DNA from: Chryseobacterium sp. GVT01B
GTDB lineage: Bacteria > Bacteroidota > Bacteroidia > Flavobacteriales > Weeksellaceae
Assembly: GCF_019970045.1 (NCBI RefSeq)
Contig: NZ_JAHXYI010000001.1
Coordinates: forward strand, 248,001 to 312,000
Reading direction: 5' to 3'
Length of the DNA stretch: 64,000 bases
The stretch's first letter is position 1, and the number at the start of each line of letters is the position of its first letter. A program made the translations under genes and the position numbers. Of the stretch, positions 2 through 17,197 are shown piece by piece. The notes beneath the pieces were generated by a model. The model made no database searches. It was not told where the DNA came from and saw nothing but the letters and a program-made list of their open reading frames with translations.

Positions 2-1360
2 AAAAAAATAAATGCCAAAATTGTAAAATCTTTTTTTGAAAGCATCAACGAAGCAAAAGAAGTTTTTAATAGTCTGCTGAAAAACGCTGAAACTTTCTTC
101 CCCGCTTTTATCTATAAAAGAATCAACAAATCCCTGACCTTCTTTTTTAACCAGATCAACAAACTGGAGAAATTCATTGCAGATCCGCTCACCGGAATGC
201 AGCATATTGTTTACAGAAACTATCAGATTGCCAATGCTTTTCTTTGTGGAATCTATAACAGTTTGATTGATATTATTGCGGGAATTTTCTCCATCATCGG
301 CTTTATCTTCAAAGCAGTCGCCGCAATGGATAAAGTGAATGACAGAAAAGTAGAATACGGTGAAATGTTTCTGGAATTAATGGAAGACCTGTTTGAAGGT
401 ATTCTTACCTTTGATTATGTAGAGTTCTTTAAGCAATGTATTACCTTCCAGCTCAAAACCATTATCCGTCTGGTAAAGTGGGTGGAAGAAAAGATTCCTC
501 AGATCATGCTGGAAAAAGCAGCTTACTATTATGGCTATATCATTGGGATTATTATTGATATTATTGTGGAAACACTTCTTACAGGTGGAACAGTAGCAGT
601 CGCCAAGCTGGCCAAATCCGTAGAAAGCTTTATCCTAAATCCGCTGGAAAAGATCACCAAGGCGATTACAACAGCTGAGAACGCTCTCAACAGGATTATA
701 GAATTTATTCGAATGATTCTTCGTGAATTTAAAAAAGGATCAAAAGAAATTTTTTCTAAATTAGAAAAGATTTTAAATGAGGTCTTTGGCTTTGGAGAAG
801 AGGTTGCGGATCATGGTTTGTCTCCTAAACAGAAGATGGCGAAGGACAAGCAGAAGAGGATTCAGGAGAAAATAGACAAAAAGAAAAATGTAGAAAAAAA
901 ATCTTTAGATGAAATAGAAGGGGGCGGAATAAGTAAAAAATTATTTTCTATTTGGAAAGTTAATTTGCAGGAAGGAAAATTTAATTGTGCAAACTGTGCT
1001 ATTGCAACAGATGCTATATTAGCAGGAAAGCCAGCATCTGCATTACCCTATACAATTCAGAAACGATTTAGAAATGGGAAATGGGAAAATTATGTTTCTT
1101 TACATGAAGGTACAAAGCCTATAATTTTAGAGAAAGAATTCGGAACTAAGTTTTCAAACTGGACAACTAATTTAAATGACTTAATAAAAGATTTAAAACC
1201 AGGTAGAAGAGGAATTATTTTTGGATATAAAGAAGGAACAAATATGGGACATTACTTTAATGTAATTAATGAAAACGGAGTGATTAAATTTCTTGATGGA
1301 CAAAAAGGGAAAAGAGCAAAATTAATATACGATTATTATCAATTTTTACCAACAAACTAA
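2..1360 (+). CDS. Polymorphic toxin, C-terminal part with papain-fold (Tox-PL-like) tip; 5' end outside window
   Basis: The reading frame is open from the first bases of the window, so this is the last ~453 residues of a longer protein; an internal ATG at 197 is probably not the start. The visible upstream part is long amphipathic and hydrophobic helices, including a Gly/Ile-rich stretch near nt 540-600, as in pre-toxin regions. After a Lys-rich linker (about nt 830-920) comes a compact C-terminal domain with Cys in an NCANCA motif (nt ~980-1000), His in GHYFNV (nt ~1250) and Asp in FLDGQ (nt ~1292). This Cys-His-Asp order, with an ASALP segment between, matches papain-fold toxins of the Tox-PL type, which act as proteases or deamidases. 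Base composition becomes more AT-rich from about nt 890, suggesting an exchanged toxin tip. The delivery route (T6SS or other) cannot be seen here. Confidence 0.8.
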   Translation, partial: KKINAKIVKSFFESINEAKEVFNSLLKNAETFFPAFIYKRINKSLTFFFNQINKLEKFIADPLTGMQHIVYRNYQIANAFLCGIYNSLIDIIAGIFSIIGFIFKAVAAMDKVNDRKVEYGEMFLELMEDLFEGILTFDYVEFFKQCITFQLKTIIRLVKWVEEKIPQIMLEKAAYYYGYIIGIIIDIIVETLLTGGTVAVAKLAKSVESFILNPLEKITKAITTAENALNRIIEFIRMILREFKKGSKEIFSKLEKILNEVFGFGEEVADHGLSPKQKMAKDKQKRIQEKIDKKKNVEKKSLDEIEGGGISKKLFSIWKVNLQEGKFNCANCAIATDAILAGKPASALPYTIQKRFRNGKWENYVSLHEGTKPIILEKEFGTKFSNWTTNLNDLIKDLKPGRRGIIFGYKEGTNMGHYFNVINENGVIKFLDGQKGKRAKLIYDYYQFLPTN

Positions 1361-1368
1361 AATAAATT

Positions 1369-1722
1369 ATGTATACAAAAGAAGAAGCAAAAGCAAAGAT
1401 GCAACGCTTTGTTGATTATCAAAATAAGTTAATAATATGGAATGATATGGGAGAGCCTGATATAATAATCTATGACCAACTTACAGAAGAACATTCTTTT
1501 GGTTGGATATTTTATTGGCAGGTAAAGGATATTAAAGATAATTTCTCTAATGTCTTAGCAGGAAATGGTCCTATTATTATTGAGAAAGATACACTAAATG
1601 TATATAAAATGATGACTGCTATTTCTGTGGAAGAAAATATTATGCTTTATAAAAAGGATAAAAATAAATTATTACAGTTGGAAGAAGATCAGGATGGATT
1701 TTTTGATCCGGTGAATTTGTAA
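1369..1722 (+). CDS. Imm35/YrhB-like immunity protein
   Basis: A 117-residue acidic cytoplasmic protein starting 8 bases after the toxin stop codon. The segment FGWIFYW, followed by LAGNGPIIIEK in the middle of the protein, is the signature of the Imm35/YrhB family, whose members are often encoded directly after papain-fold polymorphic toxins. It presumably binds and blocks the toxin domain encoded just upstream. There is no signal peptide, which fits a toxin acting in the cytoplasm of the target. Composition is as AT-rich as the toxin tip, so toxin and immunity were probably acquired together. Family recognition is from remembered motifs; pairing with the toxin is inferred from adjacency. 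Confidence 0.8.
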   Translation: MYTKEEAKAKMQRFVDYQNKLIIWNDMGEPDIIIYDQLTEEHSFGWIFYWQVKDIKDNFSNVLAGNGPIIIEKDTLNVYKMMTAISVEENIMLYKKDKNKLLQLEEDQDGFFDPVNL

Positions 1723-1789: not shown

Positions 1790-2826
1790 ATGAAGAAAAT
1801 ATTAATACTATTTATTTTACTGTCATTTAAAGGTTATTCAGCAAAAATAGATTTTAATGACCCTAATTTTAAAAGTAAACTTTTACTTGAAAAAGTAGCC
1901 AAGGATATAAATGAAAAATATATCATTATTGATCAGAATAATGATAAAGAAATAGACGAAAATGAAGCCGAAAAAATATTTTATTTAGATATTTCCAATT
2001 CAAAAATTTAATCTATTTGAACTGTTCTAATAATTCTATTTATCGAATTGATGAGTTAAATTATTTGGAAAACCTGACCGATTTAGAAATAGAAAATAAT
2101 TCTATTGAAATGTTTAGTTTAAATAATAAACAGAAACTGAAATCAATAATGGCAGAGAAATCTGGTATTAAAAATGTGAAATTAAAAAATTGTCTGTCGT
2201 TGGAAATAATTTTATTTGCCAATAATCGAATTGAGAATATAGAAATTTCTTTCTCTCCACTTTTAAAAGCAATTTCTGTTGAAAATAATAAAATTAAAAA
2301 GATAGAATTAACTAATTTTCCGGTTGTACAAGATGCTTTTTTACACAACAATGAATTGAGAGAAGTGAATATCTCAAATTGTTATTATCTGCAATCATTA
2401 GATATTGAAAATAACAAGGTAGAAAAGATAATTTTTGAAAATAATTTTAAGCTCAAATCTATACTTGCTGCCAACAATCAATTAAGAGATTTAAATATTA
2501 CAGAATTGTCAGCATTGGAAGACTTAGATTTGGATTCAAATATGATATCTTCACTCGATGCAATAAAAAATACACGATTAAAAAATATTTATTTAGATGA
2601 AAATAAATTAAAATCATTGAAAATCAGCTCGGTAAATATTTATGGGATTAATTTTTATAATAATCCTTTGAAATCTATATGTATTGATCCAAAGATGAAA
2701 AAGAAAATAATTTCCAGTTTAAAAGAAAATGACATAAAAGATTGTGAGATTATTACTACGTGCAATTTTAAAACTGAAGAACCTAATGAATATGAGGTTT
2801 TTAGAACGACTATAAAATCTAAATAA
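1790..2826 (+). pseudogene. Secreted leucine-rich-repeat protein split by a one-base frameshift
   Basis: The first part (1790-2011) has a signal peptide and an EF-hand-like loop (DQNNDKEIDENEA), then runs into a stop at 2009-2011 just after LDISNSK. In another frame the protein continues from about nt 2002 as NLIYLNCSNNSIYRI and then ~260 residues of Asn-rich leucine-rich repeats (xLExLxxxNNxI). The break lies in a run of five A (2002-2006); one extra A would join both parts into a single normal LRR protein of ~345 residues. This may be a sequencing error, a true mutation, or slippage on the A run. The gene is very AT-rich and follows the toxin/immunity pair, consistent with accessory DNA. 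Function unknown; LRR proteins of this group are usually exported or surface proteins. Confidence 0.75.
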
Positions 2827-2864
2827 ACAACATATTTATTTATCTACAACACAAAAATTATAAA

Positions 2865-2895
2865 AACCCCGCACGCCTTTAAAAGGGTCGGGGTT
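2865..2895. terminator. Bidirectional terminator between converging genes
   Basis: Hairpin with outer arms AACCCC (2865-2870) and GGGGTT (2890-2895) and further pairing of CCTTT with AAAGG inside. It is flanked by A-rich and T-rich sequence and sits between the LRR gene and the convergent serine protease gene. Confidence 0.75.
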
Positions 2896-2915
2896 ATTTA
2901 AACTAAAAAAATAAA

Positions 2916-3926
2916 TTAAGGATGTTCATTTCTAGCTCTGATGACCAGATTGACTAAATCTGAGCCGCCACTTGCAAAATTATCGCTTGGATTATGCGCG
3001 CTTTGAGTAGCTACAGCATACGGAGAGCCGTCCCAATATCCCCAAAAAGGACCTCCGCTTTGTCCAGGCCAGATATCTGCTTTATGGCTCATGCTTTCGT
3101 TGTCATCAGCACTCCAGAAATCTCCATCCAGTGCGATACCTGTTTGGTACGTTGGTCTTTGTGTTCCTGTAAGGTCTCCCGGGTATCCTGCGTGAGTCCA
3201 GTAAGCTCCTCCATCCCATGAATCAGAATATGATTTTGATCCTAACCAGCCTGTGCTGTTTCCGATAGGTCTGTCTAATACAATCACTACATAATCGTAT
3301 TGTATCTCTGTTGAATCAATAGATGGGCCTGCCACTTTATATTTGTAATAAGTCAATGTTCCCCAGGCCGTTCCGTAAGGAGCACTGCCGTTATAATACA
3401 TTGGAGTGAATTTCAGCCATCCTGTAGTATTATTAGGTTGCCAGTCAACAATATGAGAACAGGTAAGAAGGTGTCTTGGTCCGATCATTACACCGCTTCC
3501 TGAGCCTAAAGAACTTTCCACTCTGCCAACACATCTCCATGGATAGGCGGTAGAATTATATACTTTTCTCTGATCTGCTCCAAAAATAGTTCTTGCATTT
3601 TCCGGAGTCAGGAAAGAATCTCTGTCAATGAATTTTGGTTTACGGTCTCTTTTCGGTTCAAGTTTTGGATTGTATTCAAAATCAGCATGGGTAGGATAGA
3701 AATGATCAGTTTCCAGAGCTCGGATTTCCGCTGTTTTTTCATCCATAGGCATTCCTATTGTTTTCATCCCTTTAGGAAAAGTTCTTCCGTTGATGGTTTC
3801 CATAGCGGGAGCCTGCTTAAATAATTTTTCAACTGCTTCTGGTTTTTCAGTTGATTTTGCTTTAACAGTTCTAAGTCTTAAAACTTCTTCTGCTGTCATT
3901 GGGTTGTTGTTTTCGATTTTTGACAT
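2916..3926 (-). CDS. V8/trypsin-like serine protease with long N-terminal pro-like region
   Basis: A 336-residue S1-fold protease. The triad is visible: His158 in LTCSHIV, Asp211 in QYDYVVIVLD and Ser290 in GQSGGPFWG. The segment from about residue 115 (GADQRKVYNSTAYPWRCVG) resembles the mature start of glutamyl endopeptidases. Before it lie ~113 residues without a signal peptide, rich in Lys and Arg, including PKRDRKPK at 91-98; this looks like a pro-region. Lack of an export signal is unusual for this family, which is normally secreted as a zymogen. It follows the metacaspase gene in the same orientation with a 74-base gap, so the two are probably co-expressed. Inference: the metacaspase, which should cut after Lys/Arg, could activate this protease. 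No effector-associated domain is recognisable in the N-terminus. Confidence 0.85.
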   Translation of the reverse strand: MSKIENNNPMTAEEVLRLRTVKAKSTEKPEAVEKLFKQAPAMETINGRTFPKGMKTIGMPMDEKTAEIRALETDHFYPTHADFEYNPKLEPKRDRKPKFIDRDSFLTPENARTIFGADQRKVYNSTAYPWRCVGRVESSLGSGSGVMIGPRHLLTCSHIVDWQPNNTTGWLKFTPMYYNGSAPYGTAWGTLTYYKYKVAGPSIDSTEIQYDYVVIVLDRPIGNSTGWLGSKSYSDSWDGGAYWTHAGYPGDLTGTQRPTYQTGIALDGDFWSADDNESMSHKADIWPGQSGGPFWGYWDGSPYAVATQSAHNPSDNFASGGSDLVNLVIRARNEHP

Positions 3927-3949
3927 GATTATTATTTTTAATCTAGTGT

Positions 3950-3985
3950 TTTCCTACTCTTTTAATGGCTTTTCGGATTCCGCCT
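3950..3985 (-). promoter_or_regulatory. Leader motif, copy 1, upstream of the serine protease
   Basis: On the minus strand the 5' leader of the protease gene contains GGCGGAATCCGAAAAGCC followed by AAAAGAGTAGGAAAA. The same arrangement (GGCAGAACCCGAAAAGCC, then ACAGAGTAGGGAA) occurs in the leader of the metacaspase gene at 4866-4901. The distance to the start codon is alike in both (about 20-25 bases). It may be an RNA element, an operator or an mRNA processing site; I do not recognise it. Confidence 0.5.
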
Positions 3986-4000
3986 CTAATAATGATATGA

Positions 4001-4846
4001 TTAAGTGAATATTTTTTGTGAAAATTCTGTAGTGATGCTTTCTGTCTGATTGATTTGCGCTGCTCCCATAGCTGCCAATGCAATAGCAACCTGTTTATCA
4101 AGCGTTTTTCTAACAATATTCCCATTGGTAGCACGTAATATTTTGCAGAAATGGTAGGTGAAATACCCACGTATCTGTCCGCTGATATTCCCTTCCATAG
4201 AAACCTGATTGTCTTTAGCTGCAGCCCATAAAGTATGATTCATTCCGGCCACAGGAACAAGAGCTTTAGTAAGAACAGTTGATTTTTTTGAACTTTTAGA
4301 AGTTTCCATTTCACTGGCATACGTCAGGTAAAATTCATCTTCCAGCATTGGTGGAATATAACGGGCGGTTTCGTTGAGAAGATCCGCTTCCAGTCCCAGA
4401 TCCATTTTTCGGGTTCCTGTTCCGGAATAACAGCAGTCGAAGATCACTTCCATATTGACTCCCGCTTTCAGTTTGCTGAGAACTGTTTTAAAATCATCAT
4501 CGCGAATAACACCGTTATTGGCATAATCATGTGGACAAATAGCTTCGTCCAGACCATCCAGTTCCAGATCCGATCCGATATTAGCCACTCTGGTTCCGTG
4601 TCCCGAATAATAAAAAACAAGAGAATCACCTTTTACACTGGTGCTGATCATGGATTTCAGATAGTTTAATATATTCGCTCTTGTGGCATTCTGATTGGTC
4701 AGGATTTTAATCTTTGCCGGGCTAAAACCACAGATTACCAATGTATTTGCCATATCTCTTGCATCATTTACACAGCCATTAAGATCCGGACCTCCGTATC
4801 CGATGGGTGCATAATCATTAATACCTACGATAAGTGCTTTTTTCAT
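4001..4846 (-). CDS. Metacaspase (caspase-family C14 peptidase)
   Basis: A 281-residue protein starting directly with the caspase fold (KKALIVGINDY). The catalytic dyad is His83 in YYSGHGT and Cys139 in IFDCCYSGT, the bacterial counterpart of the DSCHSG motif. The acidic segment DLELDGLDEAICPHD (93-107) is the type that shapes the basic P1 pocket of metacaspases, predicting cleavage after Arg or Lys. After the p20-like part the C-terminal ~130 residues give a p10-like region with no further domain that I recognise. There is no signal peptide or membrane segment, so it should act in the cytoplasm. It is the first gene of a two-gene unit with the serine protease. Roles suggested for prokaryotic caspase homologues include programmed death and phage defence; here this is inference. 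Confidence 0.88.
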   Translation of the reverse strand: MKKALIVGINDYAPIGYGGPDLNGCVNDARDMANTLVICGFSPAKIKILTNQNATRANILNYLKSMISTSVKGDSLVFYYSGHGTRVANIGSDLELDGLDEAICPHDYANNGVIRDDDFKTVLSKLKAGVNMEVIFDCCYSGTGTRKMDLGLEADLLNETARYIPPMLEDEFYLTYASEMETSKSSKKSTVLTKALVPVAGMNHTLWAAAKDNQVSMEGNISGQIRGYFTYHFCKILRATNGNIVRKTLDKQVAIALAAMGAAQINQTESITTEFSQKIFT

Positions 4847-4865: not shown

Positions 4866-4901
4866 TTCCCTACTCTGTTTCGGCTTTTCGGGTTCTGCCT
4901 T
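4866..4901 (-). promoter_or_regulatory. Leader motif, copy 2, upstream of the metacaspase
   Basis: Second copy of the leader element described at 3950-3985, here 20 bases before the metacaspase start codon. About 28 of 36 aligned positions are shared, with an identical core CCGAAAAGCC. Confidence 0.5.
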
Positions 4902-4969
4902 TCTGTTTTTTTCTATGACAAAATTCCTTTATTCTGCAGGACGAAAACAGAGGAGAAAACCGTATTTTG

Positions 4970-4993
4970 AAAAAGGTAAAACACCTTTTTATC
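4970..4993 (-). promoter_or_regulatory. Operator-like block shared with the two-component operon promoter
   Basis: On the plus strand this reads AAAAAGGT then AAAACACC then TTTTTATC. A near copy (AAAAAGGGTG, AAAACACTG, TTTTTATC) lies at 7804-7829 in the promoter of the kinase/regulator operon. It lies 124-147 bases upstream of the metacaspase start. A weak -7 candidate (GAATTTTG on the minus strand, 4919-4926) lies between. A NarL-type regulator encoded next door is the obvious candidate to bind; this is inference. Confidence 0.45.
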
Positions 4994-5020: not shown

Positions 5021-5047
5021 ATCCGGCAGCTTGAAAAGCTGCCGGAT
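5021..5047 (-). terminator. Strong terminator of the two-component operon
   Basis: Perfect 12-bp stem ATCCGGCAGCTT/AAGCTGCCGGAT with a 3-base loop, followed on the minus strand by TTTTAATT. It lies 69 bases after the response-regulator stop codon. Confidence 0.85.
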
Positions 5048-5115: not shown

Positions 5116-5760
5116 TCAACAAAGATCATGTTTCAAGGCAAAAAGTACCAGACCTGCTCTGTTTTTTATATCCAGTTTTACAAAAACCGAATCTCGGTAG
5201 CCATCTATAGTTTTCGGACTCAGGCACATTTTGTCGGCAATCTCTTTATAGGTAAGTTCACTGCAAGCCCACTTTATAAACTCTTTCTCTCTGTCTTTCA
5301 GTTCAGAAAGAAGAGAAGCATTTTTCATTTCTTCTGTTTTTACTTTCAATAATTTCTGGGCAACAAAATCAGTATAGAAACTCCCTTTTTCAAATACAGT
5401 TTCTATGGCCTGGAAAAGGATAGAAGGCTGCATATCTTTCAGTAAATACCCTTTAGCACCTGCCTTAAGCATTCTGATAAGAACTTTTTCATCATCATCC
5501 ATGGTAAGGGCAATGACTTTGATATCGGGGTAATGTTCGGTAAGCCATTCTGTAGTTTCTATACCATTTTTATAAGGCATATTAACATCCATCAGGACTA
5601 CGGCGGGTAATTCAGAAGCTTTTTCCACACCTGCAATAAATTCTTCTCCGTTGGGATGATTCATAATGACCCGATATTGAGTGTTTTCTGTGATCATATT
5701 TTCCAAGGCTTTGGAAATTAAAGTATGATCATCAACGATCGCTATGGGAATAGTTTTCAT
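5116..5760 (-). CDS. NarL/LuxR-type response regulator
   Basis: A 214-residue two-domain regulator. The receiver domain (residues ~5-125) has the acidic pair Asp10/Asp11, phospho-acceptor Asp58 in VVLMDVNMP and Lys108-region KGYLLKD. The C-terminal helix-turn-helix (about 150-210) has the LuxR-type signature LTYKEIADKMCLSPKTIDGYRDSV. Its start overlaps the kinase stop by four bases, so the two are translationally coupled and almost certainly cognate. It is the last gene of a four-gene operon. A target could be the operator-like block present both in its own operon promoter and upstream of the metacaspase. Confidence 0.92.
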   Translation of the reverse strand: MKTIPIAIVDDHTLISKALENMITENTQYRVIMNHPNGEEFIAGVEKASELPAVVLMDVNMPYKNGIETTEWLTEHYPDIKVIALTMDDDEKVLIRMLKAGAKGYLLKDMQPSILFQAIETVFEKGSFYTDFVAQKLLKVKTEEMKNASLLSELKDREKEFIKWACSELTYKEIADKMCLSPKTIDGYRDSVFVKLDIKNRAGLVLFALKHDLC

Positions 5761-6527
5761 AATAAATTTTTATGATAGGTTATCAGAGTTTGTGTTCCTT
5801 TATTTAATTCTGAGTGTATAGAAAGTTCGGCATGAATCAGTTTTGCTCTCAGTTCCATGTTTTTTAATCCTGAGCCATCCTGAATAATGCTTGTATCAAA
5901 GCCTTTTCCGTTATCGGAAATGCTGATGTGTAATTTTTCACAGTCATCTTCCATTTGTATGGAAACATTTTTGGCTTTGGAGTGTTTTAGAATATTGTTG
6001 ATGCTTTCCTGGATAATTCTGAAGAGAATCAACCCATGTTTTGGGGAAATATCAATATCCTGTTTCTGAGTAATGAATTCTATTTTTAATAATTTCAGTT
6101 TTTTGATCCTATGAACTTCTCTTTCAACAGATTCTGCCAGTCCGAAATGAATGATCTGTTCAGTAATTAATGTTTTAGACAGGTTTCTTATATCCTGTAT
6201 ACATTCTCCCAACAGTTCATTGAGCTCAATCAGGTCCTCTTTTTCGTTGTTTTTTAATTTGGTAATCAGCTGATTTTGACGAAGACGTACAACAGAAAGT
6301 TTTTGTCCCAGATCATCATGTAATTCCTGTCCTATATAATTCAGGGTCTGCTCCTTCATTTCTACCTGAGAAGTGGCAAGTTCCTTTTCAAAACGCAGAT
6401 CTTTTTCCTTTTGTTCTATCAGCAATGTTGTTTTTTTCTTGATGAAAACAGCATAGATGAAGATCATTGTCAAAACAACGATAAATAAGGTAATTGTAAA
6501 GATGATGACCAAATTATTCTCTTCCAT
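5757..6527 (-). CDS. Sensor histidine kinase, HisKA_3 type
   Basis: A 256-residue membrane-bound kinase. One N-terminal transmembrane helix (residues ~7-28) is followed by a coiled stretch, the HisKA_3 dimerisation domain with His70 in GQELHDDLGQKL, and an HATPase_c domain with N-box NNILKHSKA, and G-box motifs DNGKGFD and GSGLKNM. It has almost no extracytoplasmic part, so sensing must come from the membrane, from the cytoplasmic coil, or from the 7-TM protein encoded 12 bases upstream. It phosphorylates the overlapping downstream response regulator. Confidence 0.92.
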   Translation of the reverse strand: MEENNLVIIFTITLFIVVLTMIFIYAVFIKKKTTLLIEQKEKDLRFEKELATSQVEMKEQTLNYIGQELHDDLGQKLSVVRLRQNQLITKLKNNEKEDLIELNELLGECIQDIRNLSKTLITEQIIHFGLAESVEREVHRIKKLKLLKIEFITQKQDIDISPKHGLILFRIIQESINNILKHSKAKNVSIQMEDDCEKLHISISDNGKGFDTSIIQDGSGLKNMELRAKLIHAELSIHSELNKGTQTLITYHKNLL

Positions 6528-6539
6528 ATCTAAGAAGTT

Positions 6540-7184
6540 TTATCTGATTTTCTCCTGTTTGTTCCAAATTAAACCTAAGATGAGTATACCGTTACTGATC
6601 AGATTCAGCATAAATAAAATGAAGAAATATATAGTCTCCGAAACAGTAGTTCTGAAAAAGAGTATTGGAATACTTCCAATAAAAAAGATCAGTAAAGCCA
6701 CTGATATCCAGAATGGTAAATAGTTTTTGATTTCCAGTATTTTATCAGAGTTAAAGGTTTGGTACAGGAACAAAATAATTGAAAATAACAACAAAAGAAT
6801 ATCTACATACAGCATATTAAAAGAAAAATGATGGAGCAGATCATCTTCTGTGTAAAACATTACAGCAATATTAAGGACAAAAAGAGCCAGAATGACGGTC
6901 TGTATCTTTTTGAGCAACGGAACATACAATAATTGGTAATAATAAAATAAGTACAAAAAGAATACAATCATCAAAAAACCAATTACATAAAATATGTCCG
7001 TAGGCAGCCTGGTCAGGTCGAAGTAGAAATAACAAAAAATATCAATCAGGGAAAACAACAGATATCCAATAATAAAAAATAAATTTTCCTTTCCGGTTTT
7101 TCTATATTTTATGACCATTAAAAGCATCACTATGATGGATAGGATCATCGATATCTGTTTCCCTGTTTCAATATTCCAGTTCAT
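6540..7184 (-). CDS. Seven-helix membrane protein of unknown function, likely sensor partner
   Basis: A 214-residue protein made almost only of hydrophobic segments, about seven, joined by short charged loops (for example KYRKTGKEN and TFNSDKILEIKN). No enzymatic motif is visible. It lies between a lipoprotein gene and the histidine kinase gene with 12-base gaps on both sides. Because the kinase has only one membrane helix, this protein is a plausible separate sensory module, comparable to 7TM sensor regions fused to kinases in other bacteria. That role is inferred from order and topology only. Confidence 0.7.
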   Translation of the reverse strand: MNWNIETGKQISMILSIIVMLLMVIKYRKTGKENLFFIIGYLLFSLIDIFCYFYFDLTRLPTDIFYVIGFLMIVFFLYLFYYYQLLYVPLLKKIQTVILALFVLNIAVMFYTEDDLLHHFSFNMLYVDILLLLFSIILFLYQTFNSDKILEIKNYLPFWISVALLIFFIGSIPILFFRTTVSETIYFFILFMLNLISNGILILGLIWNKQEKIR

Positions 7185-7196
7185 AATTTTGTGTTT

Positions 7197-7751
7197 TTAA
7201 GGCATTGTTCCTGACAAGGTTTTTGGAGGAGGCGCCAGATTGGTCATGTTCATAGATTCTATGGATGGTACATCTGTATTTTCCTCAGTGGCGGCTGATC
7301 TGGACATTGCATTGGTTCTTTCTCTTTTTTGGGCAGTAGGAACTAAAAATATAGTCTGATAACCTGCATATTCCGGTTTTGCCATTCTGTTTTTAGGATG
7401 ATTCATAGGATATTTTCCCATATAGATCCTGATTCCCGGATTTTTTAATTTCTGTTTTTTTGCATTTTCTTTTACATACTTAATATATCCTTCCATGTCT
7501 TCCAGTGAAAACCAGTACCACCGGGAGTCTGGTTCTCCGTTTCTGTACTTCATGAGAATTTCATGATTGGTTCTGGTGTATTCATCAAAAAGGACCCGGC
7601 CTTCACGATAGCTGATCAGTTTCTTTTTATAACTGTTACTAACGGGTTCTTGAGGAGATTCAGAGCAGCGGGTGCAGCTTAATAAACAGAGTGTTAGAAT
7701 AAATGCTGCACAGAGCAAACTTAAAGTCTTAGTAAAAAAGGAAGTTTTCAT
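7197..7751 (-). CDS. Lipoprotein, first gene of the two-component operon
   Basis: A 184-residue protein with a lipoprotein signal (hydrophobic stretch 10-24, lipobox LLSC). The mature part contains YxxGRVLFDEYTRTNHEILMKY and a segment RIYMGKYPMNHPKNRMAKPEYAGYQTIFLVPT, then a Ser/Met/Pro-rich low-complexity tail. I do not recognise a named domain. As the promoter-proximal gene of an operon with a 7-TM protein, kinase and regulator, it may be an accessory or ligand-binding protein anchored in the envelope. Confidence 0.7.
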   Translation of the reverse strand: MKTSFFTKTLSLLCAAFILTLCLLSCTRCSESPQEPVSNSYKKKLISYREGRVLFDEYTRTNHEILMKYRNGEPDSRWYWFSLEDMEGYIKYVKENAKKQKLKNPGIRIYMGKYPMNHPKNRMAKPEYAGYQTIFLVPTAQKRERTNAMSRSAATEENTDVPSIESMNMTNLAPPPKTLSGTMP

Positions 7752-10318: not shown

Positions 10319-13300
10319 TTATGGTTTTGAAAGTGAGAATATATTATAAACAGTTTCTGATAAATTATACGTGTTTTGGAAGCTATTCAGCTGGCCATTG
10401 CTTCTTCCTGAATACGGATCAAAAAAGTTGATATGTTTCATTCTTGAAAAATCCTCACTATATTTTATTTCAGTAACCAGAACGGCGTGCCCTTGTCTGT
10501 TCCCGGCTGCTTCTGTGGTGCTGAAACCAAGATATACAGGGTGACCTGACTGTAAACTTTCCACAATGAATTTAACAGCCTGTTTTGTCAATGCTGAAGG
10601 AATTCCGGAATGGAAATAATAGTCGTTCTTTGCTTTAGCTTCATATAGGGCATCTACTTTCAATCCGAATTTCTCGAAATACTCTTTGGTTTGATCGGCA
10701 CGTACTCCTCCAGATTCATTGGCTGCTTTTTGCTGAACAGAAACATCAAGATCTATACCTAAATATTTTGCTGCGGCCCTTGCTACCGTAGGTACACAAT
10801 CTGTTTCACCGGTCTGCGGCTTATCAGCAGCAATATCCATAGATGCGGTTTTCCAATCTACAGCTTCTGCTCCTTCATGAGCTAAGTGATTCAACCCGGA
10901 GGTTAATAATCCCTGTTTTAGGCCATCCCAGAAATTACCTCCTGCAATGGAAGAGGAAAGACCTCCGGAAAGACCACCGGAAGCAAGCATTAGAGCTTTT
11001 AATAATCCTACATTTCTGGAACCAAAAGAACTGATCGAAATAGAATTCCCTTCAACGGAGAATTTATATCCTGATTCGCCTAATGCCTGTACTCCGCTGG
11101 ATACTACAGAAGAAATAGCCCCACTCATAAATCCTGAAATAAATTTTCCTCCTCCTATTTCGGACATTGCTCCTCCTGACAAAGCATGCATCCCCGCCTG
11201 GAAGGCAGCCTTACCGACGGTCAGAGTCTGTGAAAATATAGAGGTGGCGACACTTCCGATTCCAAAGCTGATGATACCACTTGCAAGCCCGGTTGTAATG
11301 GCTTGTCCCATACCATACCAATATGGAACTCCATTGATGGTGTTGATGACAGCGTGTGTTACGGCAGACACTACTACAGCAATGATAAGAACGGCACCTA
11401 ATCCTATATTTCCACTTGGATCAGTGTACAATAAAGGATTATTGGTTACATAACCAAATTTATTATAACTCTGTGTATTAAAAGGATCCTGAATAATAGT
11501 ATCAGGACTAAGGAATCTTCTCATGATAGGATCGTAAATCCTTGCATTCATATGAATAAGCCCGGCTCTCCACAGATGTTCATGTCCGGTATATCCTCTG
11601 TCAATAAGGAGAGTTTCCCCATTGAACTGCTGCAGGTCTACAATTTGTCCATCCATCATTAATCCTTTAAGATTTCCCCACGCATCAAAGAATCGTTTTT
11701 CAACAATAGAACCATCATCTTTTGAAATGGCTAAAATACTTCCCAAATGATCACGATGCAGATAGTAGTTTTGAGACTCCTGAGATCCGTTCAAAAAGCT
11801 TACAACATCTTTTTTAATATAATTTGCAGAATAAGGATCTCCTGTAATATAGGTAACGATTTGCAGTGTGCCACCTCCTTTTCCAGATCTTCTTGTAAAT
11901 TCTATGGCACCGTCGGCAGAATAATATTTTCTTTTTCCTGAAGCTGCTGAAATCATTGAATATCTTGATTTCATTAAGTTGTATTCAAAACTTAAATCTT
12001 CTTTGTTAGGAACCTTAACTGTTAATGGCGAATTGAATGCATTGTATGTTACTTCGGCAAAACCTCGGTTCGCATTTACTTGCTGACCATTCGCATTAAG
12101 AGCGATATTGTTTAGTTTATAATCAAACTCGCCATTGTAGTTATAGTAACCAAGGTCAAGATTTGCAGCCATTCTTCCTCTTTTATCATAAGAATACTGA
12201 TTGGTTACAGTGCCATTGGTTGTTTCCTTTAATAGTCGGTTTAATTTGTCATATTCAAAAGTTTCACTTTTTCCAAAATCATTGCTGTTTCTGGACCTTA
12301 AAACTTCTTTATTGACGTCAAAATCATACATCATGTCCAGTGCAATCAGACCTCCTTTAGCATGATTCGTTCTAAGAAGAGTTCCATCCTGCGGGCTGTA
12401 GTAGTTATTGATAATATAACCATTGCCATATTCCATTTGTGTAGCCTGATTCAAAGCATTCACCGAAGATGTATGCCATATCATCTTATTGGCATTAACG
12501 TCGTTCTGCTGTGTCAGGATACCATTACTGTCATATACATTCTTTGTTTTTGAGGTGGTTGTATAGGCATTCTCATTCCATACGGCAGAAATAGCTGTTT
12601 CATCTACTCTTCCAAAGGTGTCGAAAGTCAGGTTACTACTATAAATAAACTCCGGAGTTTCCTCCTTCTTTCCTTTGATACGATAATACTGGTCATATTC
12701 TGTGGTATAGGCAAAGTTTTTTCCGTTGCTTGTTCCATAGATCTTTTCCAGAAGCTTACTCGTTGGATTGTACTGATAGAACTTTTCTATAGAAGTATTT
12801 TCTGCCGGGGTTTTACCGTATGTTTTTTCTGAAATAGTTTGTCCAAAATCATCGTACTGTAATACGGTATACCCTTTAGGATTGTCTTCACGAAGTAACC
12901 TTCCCAGAATGTCATATTGATAGGTATATGTACCTGAGGATGGATCTACAATTTTTTTCTTGTTACCCCAGTCATCAATTTCGAAAGTGGTTTTGCTGCC
13001 TTCATAGTTGGTTTCTTTTAAAGATCCATTAGGGTAATAGGTATAGTTAATTGTTCCACCATGATCCTGCTGAACAATCGTGTTACCGAAAGGATCCAGT
13101 GTTTTGGATATTTTTTTATGGCCATCATCAACGGTTACTTTTAATCCTTCGTAGCAGGTAATAACTGTTTTTCCTGTGTAAGTTACATGCTTTACCGCTC
13201 TGTTGTAGGCATCATATTCTATTGTATTCCATTTCGTCTGCTCACCTTCAAATAAAGGTTCAGATTTCTTTATTAATTTTCCGAAAATGTCATATTCGCT

Positions 13301-16300
13301 CTTTTTTACAATCCATTTACCATTTGTACTCTGGGTTTTGGTTTGTATTTCTCTGTCGAATTCATCATATGCTGAGATCGTTTCTACTCCTCCTTCTCTC
13401 TTTTTTGAGATCTGATAAATTCCTCCCGGAATTGCTGAAGCAGAAGATTTACTGATGGTAGTTTTCTTACCCAGATAATCAGTAAATGAAGTGATATTAC
13501 CCCAGCCATCATAAGTATAATAAGTCTTTAATCCTCCAATTGCGGCTGTTTCTTCTAAAAGTCTTCCTATTGTATTTACTACCGTGGAAGCTATTAAGCC
13601 ATCAGGTGTTGTTGTAGAAGTTCGGTAACGATTGGTTGAGTCGTAATCATATGTAGTAGTCTGAGAGGCAATTCCTGCGGAAGAAATTGTTTCCTGCTTC
13701 AGATTCCCAATATTATCATAGACAAAGCTCTTATTTAACGACTGAGAATTTTGGCTGAATTTCTGAATTTCTTTGATTGATCCATTTGTTGGATAGTAAG
13801 TACTTACTTCTTTTGCGGTAAACAAATCACCTTGTCTAAAAGAATTATTAACCTGCTCACTGATTTTCCCGTAGAAATAATGAAGACCATTTGTGAATTC
13901 CGGCTGATAAGTAAAGTTGGAATGTGTTATCGCATAATCCCCATAATTGATCCATGTTTTCTTTAATTTAAGATCGTCGGCTTCATCATAGGTATATCTT
14001 TTAATGACATTCATGTTTCTAAGGTTATCAGTCGTTCTTTCCTCTGTGCTGAGAATAAGGCTCTGATTTCCTTTTATGAATTTTTGATTGATGAAATTGG
14101 TTTCTGTTAAAAACTTGGAGATTCCTCCGTAAGTAGTTTTTAATAGGACGTTATCTAATAAAGGATCTTTGGTATTTACTGTCCAGAAAAGAGCATTAGC
14201 AAGCTTTTTATTTCTGAATTTTCCATTTTGCAAAACCGATTCATATCCGTCCGAAACGTAGGTTTTTTGGAATCCTAAAAGACCTCTTCCGTCAAGACTT
14301 TGTATAGCATTTTCATAACGGTATTCTTTTGAAAGAATTTTTCCACTGAAAAGAGTATGAATCTTATTAACCAGATATAATGCTCCGTTGGTCTGATGGG
14401 TATATAATGGATATTTTAAATCATTATCCTTGTGTACGTAGCAGATCTCTTCTTTCGTATCAAGTTTCATCATCTGGCGGTATTCAACTTTTTGCATAAC
14501 AGTAGAACCGTTATTCACCTCCTGAATTTGTTTTTCCAGGAAATTATTGTTGTTGAATGTGATCTTAAATTCAGACCCGGTAGTGATGTCAAAATTACTG
14601 ATAGAAGTCTTGTAGGTATTTAAGAAATTAACCTCATCAGAAACTGTGAAAAGAGAGAACGGGGTTATTTTTTCGTCTTTTAAATCAATTTCCTGATTTA
14701 GCTTGGTAAACGAGGTATTTCCGTTGTTATCTGTAGTATTGACAAAGAATTTAACCTTATTAAATCCAGGCAGCAGGGTCATGTAGATTCCCGGAACATC
14801 TGTATTGGTAATGCTGAAATGCGTTGGCCCTACATATTGAGGAAAACCAGGAACCAAACATTTATATCCCTGTTGAGCGTTGATATATATGGCTGGTACA
14901 GCTTGTGCAGTAGCATTATAGCAGGAGTGTGTGTATACCTGCTCAGTATATAAATCACCAATATTTTCATAGGTAAAATTGCTGATCAAAGGGTTCTGAT
15001 CATTATATTGTATTTTACCGAACTTTGTGATGGAGACAAGGTCAGATTTCCCATCATTGTTGATGTCTGTTACAACTACATTTCCTACGGCAAACCCTTT
15101 CATTGAGTTGTCAGGTCCCCATAAAAATAAGTCCCATCCGGATTGCTTAGGAATTGTTTCATCCTGTGAAGGTTTAATATACGCTAGTTTTTGAGCTGTA
15201 AGATCAAGCTGGCTCGGGATAAATTTTTTACCATCCGAAGTGTACATCCACCATATAAATTGCGGTGTGTTTTCAATAGCAATCCTTAGTTTTGAGAAAG
15301 GATTCATGGTATTAAATACAAACTGTGGAGTCATAAAATCCGTAAGGCCATCTCCGTTGAAATCTCCTAAAAGAATAGGAGTAATAAGTTTTCCGTCACT
15401 ATTATAGCTGAGATCATTTAAAATATTTGTTGAAGACTGTCCTGCAATATCACCATATGGCTTTATGGTCATATCATTTACATTGATCTTATAAATACCA
15501 TATTGGTTACCAGATATAATCATAATTTCCGGTACTCCGTCACCATCCATTTCCAAAAGTCTGTAATTGTCTTCTGTAAGCAGAAGAGAGGTTACTGCAA
15601 ACTCCTTTCGTGTAATGACATCCCCGGTTTCTTTACCTACTTCATATAAATAGATTTTTTGATTAGCCTGTGTATTTCCGCTGATATAAATAAGATCGAA
15701 AAGACCGTCATTATTAAAATCCCCCGGAATAAACATTTTCTGGGCTATTCTGGGAGGAGATGTATAGGTTTGCTGTCCCTGAAAACCGCTGCTAATCCAT
15801 GGGATAGAAGGACCACCAGAAATAACTTTTGTTTTTCCTGTTTTGAAGTCCCGGATTTCTATCTGTCCCTGTAACGACTCGTGTGTTTTGGAAATAGTAT
15901 TGACAATGATCAGCTGGTCATTAGTTGTAATTTTACTGTCATTAATTAATGTTTTTCCCGTAAAGATTCTGGTATGGGCATTAACATAGGTGCTGGGAGT
16001 TATCTGGCCATAAGGGCTGTTAAGATAAAATATAGGATTTCGTATACTACCTGGCTCTGGAGGAGGAGGGGTAGATCCGCCAAAACCTCCGTTTGGCCCG
16101 CTTCTGAAATCAGTAACGGTAGTTGATACATAGAATATATCGTTTCCGCTATTGTTATAAAGGTTACCTGCAGTTACATCTCCTAAACGATAAGTACTTG
16201 CAGGAGTAGTAGCAAGCTGACGCTTTGTTACCTCAGCAGTACCTGTGGAATTGGGAGAATTATAATTGAAGTTGAGCGGTCTCAGGCTTTCTCCGGTTTC

Positions 16301-17197
16301 ATTGAATACATTGATGGTACGTAACCTTTCGTTACTGTCCGCATCTACAAAATCATAGCTGAAAGTGTACTTCCTGTAATCGCCGGAATAAGTAGATCCA
16401 GTGACAATTTCAGAAATGACTTTACTGTTGATATACTGCTGTCCGTTTCTATAAATTTTTGCAATTTTTTTACGGTCTTTGTATAATACTTTTAAATAAA
16501 ATTTATCCGTACCGGTGTCTGTTCCTCCATAGGATATTTTATCCAGTCTTGGAGTATTGTTTGTAATTACATAAGTGTAATGGATTTCATTATCAAATGA
16601 ATCCGCCATTTTTACAATATAGTGCTGCCCTGGTGAAAGCTCATTATACCAGGCAATTTTTCCATCCGTATACTGAATAATGAAACTATATGTTCCAGAG
16701 GATTTTGTAATCTTAATCTTGGAGAAATTTTTAGTAACATATTCTGTATCTGATTTTTTAAGGAGCCTTTGGCCATCTAAATAATAAGGGTCGTTGTCAT
16801 CAAACTGCGGACCTATGGTGATCCCGTCTACATTCTGACTTTTTCCTCCTCTGCTGATAATAGAAAGGCCTGTGAAACTCCATCCCCATCCGGCATTTCC
16901 GTTTCCTGCCTGGCTATTGTAAACCAAGGCTGTATTGGGCTGAAAATTATTTAACCCTTTTAAGGTTTCCAAAGGAACAGTATAAGTAAGTGACCCTCCT
17001 TCGCTGACAGACATTTCTGATTTTATAGAAGGGATAAGAGAATAGTCTGTCGAAATGGTCTTTGAAGAGTTCTGCTGGTTTTCTTTATACCCTGCAGTAT
17101 TATACTCAAGAGATACAGATGTTGCTTGCTGAGCTCCTACAAATTGTGCTAAAGAGAGAAGCGCAAGAACTCCAAGAAATTTTATATTTTTTATCAT
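10319..17197 (-). CDS. SpvB/YD-repeat (Rhs-type) giant toxin with papain-like C-terminal domain
   Basis: A 2292-residue exported protein. A signal peptide (1-22) is followed by a SpvB-like region (VPLETLKGLNNFQPNTALVYNS) with FG-GAP/VCBS-type repeats (GDFNNDGLFD, GDFNGDGLTD, TDINNDGKSD), then many YD repeats (about 1150-1850), then the RHS-associated core ending around residue 1930 (MNARIYDPIMRRFLSPD ... DPSGN). After this come Gly/Ala-rich hydrophobic segments (1930-2100) and a C-terminal domain with Cys ~2134 (ETDCVPTVARAA), His ~2243 (QGHAVLVTEI) and Asp ~2260 (NFFDPYSG), the triad order of a papain/C39-like cysteine protease. Rhs cores form shells that enclose their toxin. It is the third gene of an operon with a T9SS-sorted protein and a TPR protein; no T9SS domain is visible on this protein itself. 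Confidence 0.88.
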   Translation of the reverse strand: MIKNIKFLGVLALLSLAQFVGAQQATSVSLEYNTAGYKENQQNSSKTISTDYSLIPSIKSEMSVSEGGSLTYTVPLETLKGLNNFQPNTALVYNSQAGNGNAGWGWSFTGLSIISRGGKSQNVDGITIGPQFDDNDPYYLDGQRLLKKSDTEYVTKNFSKIKITKSSGTYSFIIQYTDGKIAWYNELSPGQHYIVKMADSFDNEIHYTYVITNNTPRLDKISYGGTDTGTDKFYLKVLYKDRKKIAKIYRNGQQYINSKVISEIVTGSTYSGDYRKYTFSYDFVDADSNERLRTINVFNETGESLRPLNFNYNSPNSTGTAEVTKRQLATTPASTYRLGDVTAGNLYNNSGNDIFYVSTTVTDFRSGPNGGFGGSTPPPPEPGSIRNPIFYLNSPYGQITPSTYVNAHTRIFTGKTLINDSKITTNDQLIIVNTISKTHESLQGQIEIRDFKTGKTKVISGGPSIPWISSGFQGQQTYTSPPRIAQKMFIPGDFNNDGLFDLIYISGNTQANQKIYLYEVGKETGDVITRKEFAVTSLLLTEDNYRLLEMDGDGVPEIMIISGNQYGIYKINVNDMTIKPYGDIAGQSSTNILNDLSYNSDGKLITPILLGDFNGDGLTDFMTPQFVFNTMNPFSKLRIAIENTPQFIWWMYTSDGKKFIPSQLDLTAQKLAYIKPSQDETIPKQSGWDLFLWGPDNSMKGFAVGNVVVTDINNDGKSDLVSITKFGKIQYNDQNPLISNFTYENIGDLYTEQVYTHSCYNATAQAVPAIYINAQQGYKCLVPGFPQYVGPTHFSITNTDVPGIYMTLLPGFNKVKFFVNTTDNNGNTSFTKLNQEIDLKDEKITPFSLFTVSDEVNFLNTYKTSISNFDITTGSEFKITFNNNNFLEKQIQEVNNGSTVMQKVEYRQMMKLDTKEEICYVHKDNDLKYPLYTHQTNGALYLVNKIHTLFSGKILSKEYRYENAIQSLDGRGLLGFQKTYVSDGYESVLQNGKFRNKKLANALFWTVNTKDPLLDNVLLKTTYGGISKFLTETNFINQKFIKGNQSLILSTEERTTDNLRNMNVIKRYTYDEADDLKLKKTWINYGDYAITHSNFTYQPEFTNGLHYFYGKISEQVNNSFRQGDLFTAKEVSTYYPTNGSIKEIQKFSQNSQSLNKSFVYDNIGNLKQETISSAGIASQTTTYDYDSTNRYRTSTTTPDGLIASTVVNTIGRLLEETAAIGGLKTYYTYDGWGNITSFTDYLGKKTTISKSSASAIPGGIYQISKKREGGVETISAYDEFDREIQTKTQSTNGKWIVKKSEYDIFGKLIKKSEPLFEGEQTKWNTIEYDAYNRAVKHVTYTGKTVITCYEGLKVTVDDGHKKISKTLDPFGNTIVQQDHGGTINYTYYPNGSLKETNYEGSKTTFEIDDWGNKKKIVDPSSGTYTYQYDILGRLLREDNPKGYTVLQYDDFGQTISEKTYGKTPAENTSIEKFYQYNPTSKLLEKIYGTSNGKNFAYTTEYDQYYRIKGKKEETPEFIYSSNLTFDTFGRVDETAISAVWNENAYTTTSKTKNVYDSNGILTQQNDVNANKMIWHTSSVNALNQATQMEYGNGYIINNYYSPQDGTLLRTNHAKGGLIALDMMYDFDVNKEVLRSRNSNDFGKSETFEYDKLNRLLKETTNGTVTNQYSYDKRGRMAANLDLGYYNYNGEFDYKLNNIALNANGQQVNANRGFAEVTYNAFNSPLTVKVPNKEDLSFEYNLMKSRYSMISAASGKRKYYSADGAIEFTRRSGKGGGTLQIVTYITGDPYSANYIKKDVVSFLNGSQESQNYYLHRDHLGSILAISKDDGSIVEKRFFDAWGNLKGLMMDGQIVDLQQFNGETLLIDRGYTGHEHLWRAGLIHMNARIYDPIMRRFLSPDTIIQDPFNTQSYNKFGYVTNNPLLYTDPSGNIGLGAVLIIAVVVSAVTHAVINTINGVPYWYGMGQAITTGLASGIISFGIGSVATSIFSQTLTVGKAAFQAGMHALSGGAMSEIGGGKFISGFMSGAISSVVSSGVQALGESGYKFSVEGNSISISSFGSRNVGLLKALMLASGGLSGGLSSSIAGGNFWDGLKQGLLTSGLNHLAHEGAEAVDWKTASMDIAADKPQTGETDCVPTVARAAAKYLGIDLDVSVQQKAANESGGVRADQTKEYFEKFGLKVDALYEAKAKNDYYFHSGIPSALTKQAVKFIVESLQSGHPVYLGFSTTEAAGNRQGHAVLVTEIKYSEDFSRMKHINFFDPYSGRSNGQLNSFQNTYNLSETVYNIFSLSKP

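What the first reader, a model, noticed from the sequence alone, without database searches (positions are those of the whole stretch)
2916..4846. Cytoplasmic metacaspase plus V8-like protease pair: possible two-step proteolytic cascade
Seen: two adjacent protease genes in one direction, both with intact catalytic residues (Cys139/His83; His158, Asp211, Ser290) and both without export signals. The serine protease has a ~113-residue Lys/Arg-rich N-terminal region ending in QRK right before its V8-like mature start. Known: metacaspases cut after Arg/Lys, and glutamyl endopeptidases are made as zymogens cut at this place. Inference: the metacaspase activates the second protease inside the cell, perhaps in a death or defence response. 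A pair without any recognisable death, TIR or effector-associated domain, beside a two-component system, is not one I know.
Basis: partly seen in the sequence, partly recalled or inferred. Interest (0 to 1): 0.75.

Follow-up and report, generated by a model that had tools for sequence, protein, structure and literature searches.

The report
RNA-tagged caspase and serine protease pair
In Chryseobacterium bacteria a caspase-like protease gene and a second protease gene sit side by side in all 54 of 148 genomes searched that carry either one in its close form, both genes carry the RNA element that also precedes bacteriocin-like peptide genes, and the first enzyme would likely switch on the second by cutting it at one conserved spot.

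Summary
In 148 genomes of the genus the metacaspase (MC) and the close serine protease (SP) occur in the same 54, always adjacent; 94 lack both close forms, three of them with a distant SP paralogue. All 54 keep the membrane gene of the neighbouring sensor cluster; four genomes keep that cluster without the pair. (1) The likely activation point is Arg112|Thr113, not after QRK121: structure alignment puts Thr113 at V8's Val1; P1 is Lys/Arg in 75 of 93 aligned sequences and 53 of 53 MC-linked loci, against 10 of 37 unlinked. (2) Both genes carry a DUF805b RNA hairpin (RF02914) about 20 nt before the start codon, in 47 of 47 Chryseobacterium pair loci; in this genome 9 of 18 such elements precede bacteriocin-like GG-leader peptides. 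(3) Glu specificity is not supported, and self-activation of SP stays a serious rival. No defence system was recognised among 43 flanking proteins. Activation of SP by MC is inferred, untested. New variant of a known kind.

The parts
2916..3926 (-). serine protease zymogen (SP), 336 aa, V8-type fold, catalytic His158/Asp211/Ser290
3591..3926 (-). N-terminal prodomain of SP, residues 1-112; residues about 11-60 and 71-100 predicted with good confidence
   Evidence: pLDDT by block; P78 invariant, P9 nearly so
3588..3593 (-). predicted cut site Arg112|Thr113
   Evidence: P1 K/R 75 of 93, P1' Thr 93 of 93, P3' Phe 93 of 93; Thr113 = V8 Val1 position; pLDDT under 50 at residues 112-114
3951..3986 (-). 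DUF805b RNA element in the SP leader, 24 nt before the ATG
   Evidence: Rfam RF02914 48.2 bits, gathering 35.6, E 1.2e-10
4001..4846 (-). metacaspase-like C14 protease (MC), 281 aa, His83/Cys139, Asp28/Asp137 of the presumed S1 pocket
4867..4901 (-). DUF805b RNA element in the MC leader, 20 nt before the ATG
   Evidence: Rfam RF02914 44.8 bits, gathering 35.6, E 1.8e-9
4917..4990 (-). conserved block upstream of MC, perhaps promoter and regulator site (inferred)
   Evidence: runs of columns conserved in 90% or more of 46 leaders, e.g. GAATTTTGTC
5021..5047 (-). intrinsic terminator between the response regulator gene and MC
   Evidence: 12-bp stem and T run; -20.6 kcal/mol, z -6.5
2864..2900 (-). 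terminator-like hairpin after SP
   Evidence: -16.1 kcal/mol, z -3.2; not listed by the simple scan
5116..5760 (-). LuxR-type response regulator (RR)
   Evidence: PF00072 + PF00196; linked in 47 of 47 Chryseobacterium pair loci
5757..6527 (-). sensor histidine kinase (HK) of HisKA_3 type
   Evidence: PF07730 + PF02518; linked as RR
6540..7184 (-). 214-aa membrane protein (TM; multi-pass by eye), no Pfam or NCBIfam family
   Evidence: same strand and contig as MC in 54 of 54 pair genomes
7197..7751 (-). 184-aa lipoprotein (LP; lipobox LLSC read by eye), no family

Best explanation
The two genes encode a metacaspase-like C14 protease and a V8-fold serine protease with a predicted folded prodomain, kept together as one two-gene cassette beside a two-component system, and the metacaspase would likely activate the serine protease in the cytoplasm by cutting after Arg112, which would expose Thr113 at the position of V8's mature N-terminus. 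Shown here: the cassette, its co-inheritance, the conserved catalytic residues, the basic P1 residue, and the two DUF805b RNA elements. Inferred: the cassette is its own transcription unit, switched on by the neighbouring LP/TM/HK/RR relay; translation of each enzyme is tuned separately by its own DUF805b hairpin close to the start codon; MC is held inactive until a cation rise (for instance envelope damage letting Ca2+ in), then processes SP; freed SP degrades proteins in the damaged or dying cell or its lysate. Because the same RNA element precedes bacteriocin-like GG-leader peptides, the pair probably serves competition or lysis conditions rather than phage defence.
For: Coupling: the 54 MC genomes and the 54 close-SP genomes of 148 are the same ones, adjacent, same strand, 66-79 bp between the matched stretches in 53 and 281 in G480, whose SP has stops inside. 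In a phylum sample of 395 the same four genomes hold both close forms. Four genomes with the sensor cluster lack both genes together. Site: Thr113 = V8 Val1 / Esp Val67; P1 is K/R in 75 of 93, changes about 21 times on the tree but crosses basic/non-basic only 5 times, while P4-P8 change 41-52 times. Linked loci 53 of 53 basic, unlinked 10 of 37 (L021 and L106 are the same contig by length, so 52 distinct). Twelve further SP/MC pairs that share a longest-contig length (compared by eye) have K/R in 12 of 12. Asp284 of the pocket is invariant in 93 while P1 switches class, so P1 does not simply track SP's own pocket (inference). MC keeps Asp28 and Asp137 (= CgMCA-I Asp236, TbMCA Asp211) in 51 of 51. 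RNA.
Against: No biochemistry. P1 is also Lys in 10 of 37 SP loci without MC nearby, so another protease or SP itself can be the cutter; unlinked C14 matches (E 1e-3) occur in 9 of those 10 genomes but also in 11 of 16 genomes with non-basic P1, which does not discriminate. Linked lineages are few: collapsed at 90% identity 6 of 6 against 6 of 28, p 7e-4; at 80% 4 of 4 against 2 of 22, p 0.001; at 70% 2 of 2 against 1 of 13, p 0.03; at 60% 1 of 1 against 0 of 7, p 0.13. P3 (Gly in 70 of 93, 13 changes) is more conserved than P1. Other prodomain positions are also mostly basic (for example 22, 92, 96, 102). Of the three aspartates that bind Ca2+ in CgMCA-I, Asp198 and Asp214 are kept and Asp245 is Arg146. 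MC homologues of 300-330 bits live without SP in 9 of 395 genomes. The MC model is poor (pLDDT 63). Nothing ties the DUF805b element to a ligand or protein.
Confidence: 0.45

Rival explanations
1. SP activates itself: a preference for Lys/Arg lets it cut its own 112-113 bond, and MC acts on other targets in the same pathway.
For: Invariant Asp284 six residues before Ser290 (93 of 93) is where trypsin has Asp189 (recalled); Val/Ile285 replaces the Thr of Glu-specific 1p3c. P1 Lys persists in 10 of 37 unlinked loci.
Against: Glu-specific 1p3c also has Asp at that place, so Asp284 alone does not show a Lys/Arg preference. The loci with P1 = Thr (23 of 37 unlinked) would lose their own site although Asp284 is invariant in the nine P1 = Thr rows of A4. 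Self-activation does not by itself explain the strict MC/SP co-inheritance.
Confidence: 0.25
2. The prodomain is never removed: it is a permanent regulatory or docking domain, and MC and SP are co-regulated but independent proteases.
For: Most of residues 11-100 is predicted with good confidence (pTM 0.89 for the chain); SP and MC each occur without the other in other lineages.
Against: Invariant Thr113/Phe115 behind a hypervariable, low-confidence linker with a mostly basic P1 looks like a maturation junction.
Confidence: 0.15
3. MC and SP process or destroy the bacteriocin-like GG-leader peptides that carry the same RNA element (many begin MKNLKKLS..., rich in Lys/Arg).
For: Shared DUF805b element: 9 of 18 elements of this genome precede such peptides.
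Against: Elements and GG-leader-like peptides also occur in a genome with neither close MC nor SP (G038); an exporter beside one peptide carries its own C39 peptidase.
Confidence: 0.06
4. A caspase-type anti-phage system like canu, in which an infection sensor triggers MC and SP kills the cell.
For: Same logic (caspase-family protease plus proenzyme) as canu (PMC12799240, abstract and passages); PADLOC's general caspase model matches MC.
Against: No nuclease, TPR, Ig or EAD family in the six genes of the module; no system among 43 flanking proteins scanned.
Confidence: 0.07

Closest known systems
canu caspase-nuclease systems (CanABC; PMC12799240, abstract and passages seen)
   Same: caspase-family protease encoded next to a proenzyme that it activates by site-specific cutting
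   Different: partner here is a V8-fold protease, not an MBL nuclease; no Ig/TPR parts found; a two-component system and RNA leaders instead
V8-type S1 proteases: V8, Esp, B. intermedius glutamyl endopeptidase
   Different: no export signal seen, long prodomain predicted folded, Glu-pocket Thr replaced
Metacaspases / orthocaspases (TbMCA2, Yca1, CgMCA-I)
   Same: His/Cys dyad, acidic residues at the S1 positions, some cation-site aspartates
   Different: short stand-alone bacterial form; one Ca2+ ligand replaced; substrate unknown
Trypsin and caspase effectors of NTP-dependent conflict systems (PMC7159879, passages seen)
   Same: both protease superfamilies are used as effectors
   Different: in the passages seen they display mutual exclusivity and are fused to or encoded with VMAP/vWA parts; here they are paired without such parts
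DUF805b RNA (Rfam RF02914)
   Same: both leaders score over the gathering cut-off; hairpin and AGAGUAGG tail conserved
   Different: no difference found; no call tells the function of the family

Membership tests
metacaspase (C14) | His/Cys catalytic dyad | tested here: met
   His83 and Cys139 invariant in 51 of 51
metacaspase (C14) | acidic residues for a basic P1 pocket | tested here: met
   Asp28 and Asp137 invariant in 51 of 51; Asp137 aligns with CgMCA-I Asp236 = TbMCA Asp211; the pocket roles are recalled
metacaspase (C14) | cation-binding aspartates | tested here: inconclusive
   D100, D116, D117 match CgMCA-I D198, D214, D215; the third Ca2+ ligand D245 is R146
metacaspase (C14) | cleavage after Lys/Arg | not testable with these tools
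   needs an enzyme assay
V8-type S1 protease | fold and triad | tested here: met
glutamyl endopeptidase | pocket Thr (190, numbering and role recalled) | tested here: not met
   Val 66, Ile 27 of 93 at 285, aligned with Thr of 1p3c
glutamyl endopeptidase | pocket His (213, recalled) | tested here: inconclusive
   Gln308 in 93 of 93 stands at the place by eye; no alignment of mine with a Glu-specific enzyme covers it (that with 1p3c ends before it; YdgD has Gln too)
glutamyl endopeptidase | secreted with signal peptide | tested here: inconclusive
   no hydrophobic stretch seen by eye; no signal-peptide program was run
canu | MBL-fold nuclease partner | tested here: not met
   partner is a PF13365 protease and no nuclease family was found among the window and Flavobacterium neighbours scanned
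EAD/conflict-system caspase | EAD or EACC1-type association | tested here: not met
   NF047832 54.2 bits against cut-off 140; only PF00656 in Pfam
DUF805b RNA | score at or above the Rfam gathering cut-off | tested here: met
   48.2 and 44.8 against 35.6 bits
DUF805b RNA | covarying hairpin | tested here: met
   11 elements of this genome, 4 pairs: 86% of cells paired and 10 cells changed on both sides, each reached by 0 of 500 shuffles; but pairs with a double change (3) and further pair types (5) are reached by 179 and 130 of 500. The structure line is Rfam's, so it leans that way; single-sequence folding is not unusual (z -0.10, 0.18)

The most novel reading that the evidence does not exclude
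Flavobacteriia run a two-step caspase cascade inside a bacteriocin regulon: an envelope-sensing two-component system makes an initiator metacaspase and an executioner zymogen, an orphan RNA hairpin at each start codon gates translation of both together with the GG-leader peptides, and cation entry on damage fires metacaspase, serine protease and, in Flavobacterium, a co-encoded muramidase, giving programmed lysis that releases the cell's weapons.
Probability: 0.15. Interest if true: 0.87.

Novelty: new variant of a known kind. Interest (0 to 1): 0.62.

Why it matters
What bacterial metacaspases cut is largely open. Here a strictly co-inherited neighbour offers a candidate substrate with one predicted bond to test, without the death or immunity domains searched for. 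It also gives the uncharacterised DUF805b RNA a concrete gene set (GG-leader peptides plus this protease pair) and a narrow place about 20 nt before the start codon, which makes translational control directly testable.

Tried and rejected
Cut after QRK121: rejected, Arg120 lies in the mature enzyme and is invariant. Glu specificity: not supported on the pocket Thr. Defence-island membership: little support (the SP and RR hits are weak, 17-18 bits). An N-terminal GG-type leader on SP (its PMTxxEVxKLKxxKA resembles GG leaders by eye): set aside, no GG, and residues 11-20 are predicted with pLDDT 93. A conserved inverted repeat AAAAAGGT-N5-ACCTTTTT as regulator site: in the window and in 1 of 47 other loci, dropped. 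MC structure: model too poor to use. The 516-aa protein of the Flavobacterium operon: no family, no significant solved relative, 52 homologues with no descriptive name shown, no match in the window's genome (no positive control there). Papers: DUF805b gave no paper; DUF805 gave 8, none about RNA by title or shown abstract; a paper recalled as the source of the motif (10.1093/nar/gkx699) is not held. No title or shown abstract in the listings described an MC/V8-fold pair; PMC3501461 (passages) reports proteolysis domains in 23 metacaspase operons and has no occurrence of 'trypsin'. Odds changed on re-checking: self-activation from 0.27 to 0.25, because 1p3c also has Asp at the Asp284 position.

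Full report
Observation. The window carries SP (2916-3926, minus) and MC (4001-4846, minus), then RR, HK, a membrane protein (TM) and a lipoprotein (LP), all on the minus strand. Families: MC PF00656; SP PF13365; RR PF00072/PF00196; HK PF07730/PF02518; TM and LP none. The nearest named records are Chryseobacterium.

Linkage. A protein-pattern scan of named genomes returned 78 distinct SP loci (the best 80 of 105 kept); 47 of 78 hold MC right upstream (broken into three frames in L051). MC beyond a contig end cannot be excluded for short loci such as L042 or L049. In 148 genomes of the genus, 57 had an SP match: 54 close (at least 530 bits) and 3 distant (about 125 bits); 54 had MC. The two sets of 54 are identical and the genes are adjacent on one strand, 66-79 bp between matches in 53, and 281 in G480, whose SP has stops inside the match. 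In a phylum sample of 395, SP matched in 7 and MC in 36; the four close SPs and the four close MCs (over 500 bits) are in the same genomes; 3 distant SPs and 32 weaker MCs stand alone. TM matched in 59 of 148, one of them marginal (27 bits); 54 of 54 pair genomes have it beside MC on the same strand. Four genomes (G423, G471, G474, G490) have LP-TM-HK-RR but no MC or SP; in G423 the gene after RR is one that lies about 1.8-2.5 kb downstream of SP in L020 and L015. So the two protease genes behave as one cassette attached to a slightly more widely kept sensor module. In Flavobacterium cucumis (L057) a sensor module lies divergently beside MC-SP (TM there read by eye only). In L053, L057, L067 and L105 the run continues downstream with unknown genes and, by eye, a gene like the PF11860 muramidase identified in L053; L052 shows none.

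Maturation site. Solved relatives are YdgD 7uxg and glutamyl endopeptidase 1p3c by sequence and 1p3c, Esp and V8 among others by fold. The structure alignments set residue 115 on residue 3 of V8 and 1p3c and on residue 69 of Esp, so Thr113 is the mature N-terminal position. Around it (93 sequences): P1 K 53, R 22, T 9, E 6, Q 3; P1' Thr 93; P3' Phe 93; P4-P12 highly variable. On a FastTree of the catalytic domain P1 changes about 21 times but between basic and other only 5 times; P3 (mostly Gly) changes 13 times. In the AlphaFold model most of the prodomain and the protease are confident, and pLDDT falls below 50 at residues 112-114, and also at 1-5 and 64-68. Among 90 loci, 53 of 53 with MC nearby are basic at P1, 10 of 37 without it are (23 T, 2 E, 1 Y, 1 V). 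Twelve more SP/MC protein pairs that share a longest-contig length, used as a proxy for one contig, are 12 of 12 basic. The association is weak once relatives are merged.

Who cuts? For MC: co-inheritance, basic P1, and MC's conserved acidic residues at the S1 positions; of the aspartates reported at the cation site of CgMCA-I (PMC9622860, passages), Asp198, Asp214 and Asp215 are kept and Asp245 is not. Against a simple story: SP has an invariant Asp six residues before Ser290, the trypsin Asp189 place (recalled), and lacks the pocket Thr of 1p3c, so SP could prefer Lys/Arg and activate itself; but 1p3c, Glu-specific, has the same Asp, so this is no proof. The loci with Thr at P1 keep Asp284, which argues that P1 is not set by SP's own pocket (inference). 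C14 proteins elsewhere in the genome do not discriminate: 9 of 10 genomes of unlinked Lys-P1 loci and 11 of 16 of the others searched have one at E 1e-3. I put MC-driven activation at 0.45 and self-activation at 0.25.

RNA leaders. The only two Rfam matches over cut-off in the 64-kb window are DUF805b elements before SP and before MC. A model built from the 11 over-cut-off elements of this genome (two of them the window's own) gave 106 matches at E 0.05 in 65 loci searched: 94 are the MC and SP leaders of 47 of 47 Chryseobacterium pair loci; nine are the SP leaders of L053, L105 and L039 and the leader of the 516-aa type gene in L051, L052, L053, L057, L067 and L105; three are weak; none lies before RR, HK, TM or LP (a pattern check agrees for those four genes, and misses some MC and SP leaders that the model finds). 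No MC leader element was found in the Flavobacterium loci. The hairpin covaries by two of the measures, but single-sequence folding energy is not unusual. In this genome 18 elements reach E 0.01, 11 over the cut-off; at E 0.01 two of 14 control genomes also ring, none over the cut-off. Nine of 18 (6 of 11) lie 18-22 nt before a leader_Chryseo bacteriocin-like peptide; 36 such peptides are found genome-wide at E 0.01, 29 over the family cut-off, and of the nine seven are over it (coordinates compared by hand). Others precede a tail-collar protein, a DUF6520 protein and a DUF308 protein. In three further genomes (G083, G423, G038; 25 elements at E 1e-4, 20 over the cut-off), 23 were examined (the two at the pair of G083 left out) and 22 have an ATG frame of 40 or more codons 13-26 nt downstream, many of them GG-leader-like by eye. 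G038 has neither close MC nor SP, so the element serves more than this pair.

Transcription. A strong terminator separates RR from MC and a hairpin follows SP, so MC-SP is probably its own unit (inferred); a block upstream of MC is conserved.

Reading. The best fit is a sensor-linked, RNA-tuned metacaspase-to-serine-protease relay used under competition or envelope stress; cation triggering, lysis and the target proteins are inference. Related logic is known from canu (PMC12799240, abstract and passages); the conflict-system survey describes trypsin- and caspase-like domains as mutually exclusive in effector positions of the systems it treats there (PMC7159879, passages). Hence 'new variant of a known kind'.

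Noticed in passing
window 197-1722 (+): Glutamine-deamidase toxin domain protein (PF15644, 66.6 bits) followed by an Imm35-like gene (18.2 bits, below cut-off 27.5); toxin relatives recur on the 3' side of the pair in L006, L010, L011, L047 and L107.
   Followed up: partly
window 2017-2826 (+): Leucine-rich-repeat protein (PF12799) beside the pair; in f18 genomes a metacaspase of about 300 bits also sits beside LRR-like proteins (L093, L097, L104, by eye).
   Followed up: no
L048, L049, L050, L077: SP relatives without MC sit next to other proteases: subtilase S8 (L049, L077), papain C1 with a chagasin inhibitor (L050), NAL1-like trypsin fold (L048).
   Followed up: partly
L053:13538-14368, L057, L067, L105: An N-acetylmuramidase (PF11860, 212.5 bits in L053) lies downstream of MC-SP in Flavobacterium; genes with a similar start are seen by eye in L057, L067 and L105.
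   Followed up: partly
L143:4115-6370: A C39-peptidase ABC exporter is followed by a DUF805b element and a GG-leader-like peptide in the window's own genome.
   Followed up: partly
L115, L116, L117: Three genomes of the genus have only a distant SP paralogue (about 125 bits), near groES/groEL-like genes (by eye), with Thr or Val at P1 and no close MC.
   Followed up: partly
window 10319-17197 (-): 2292-aa RHS/YD-repeat-like protein with a cysteine-peptidase-like C-terminus (by eye).
   Followed up: no
L106:3-1527: C39 peptidase and radical-SAM genes (peptide-maturation type) lie about 4 kb from the pair in this one locus.
   Followed up: no
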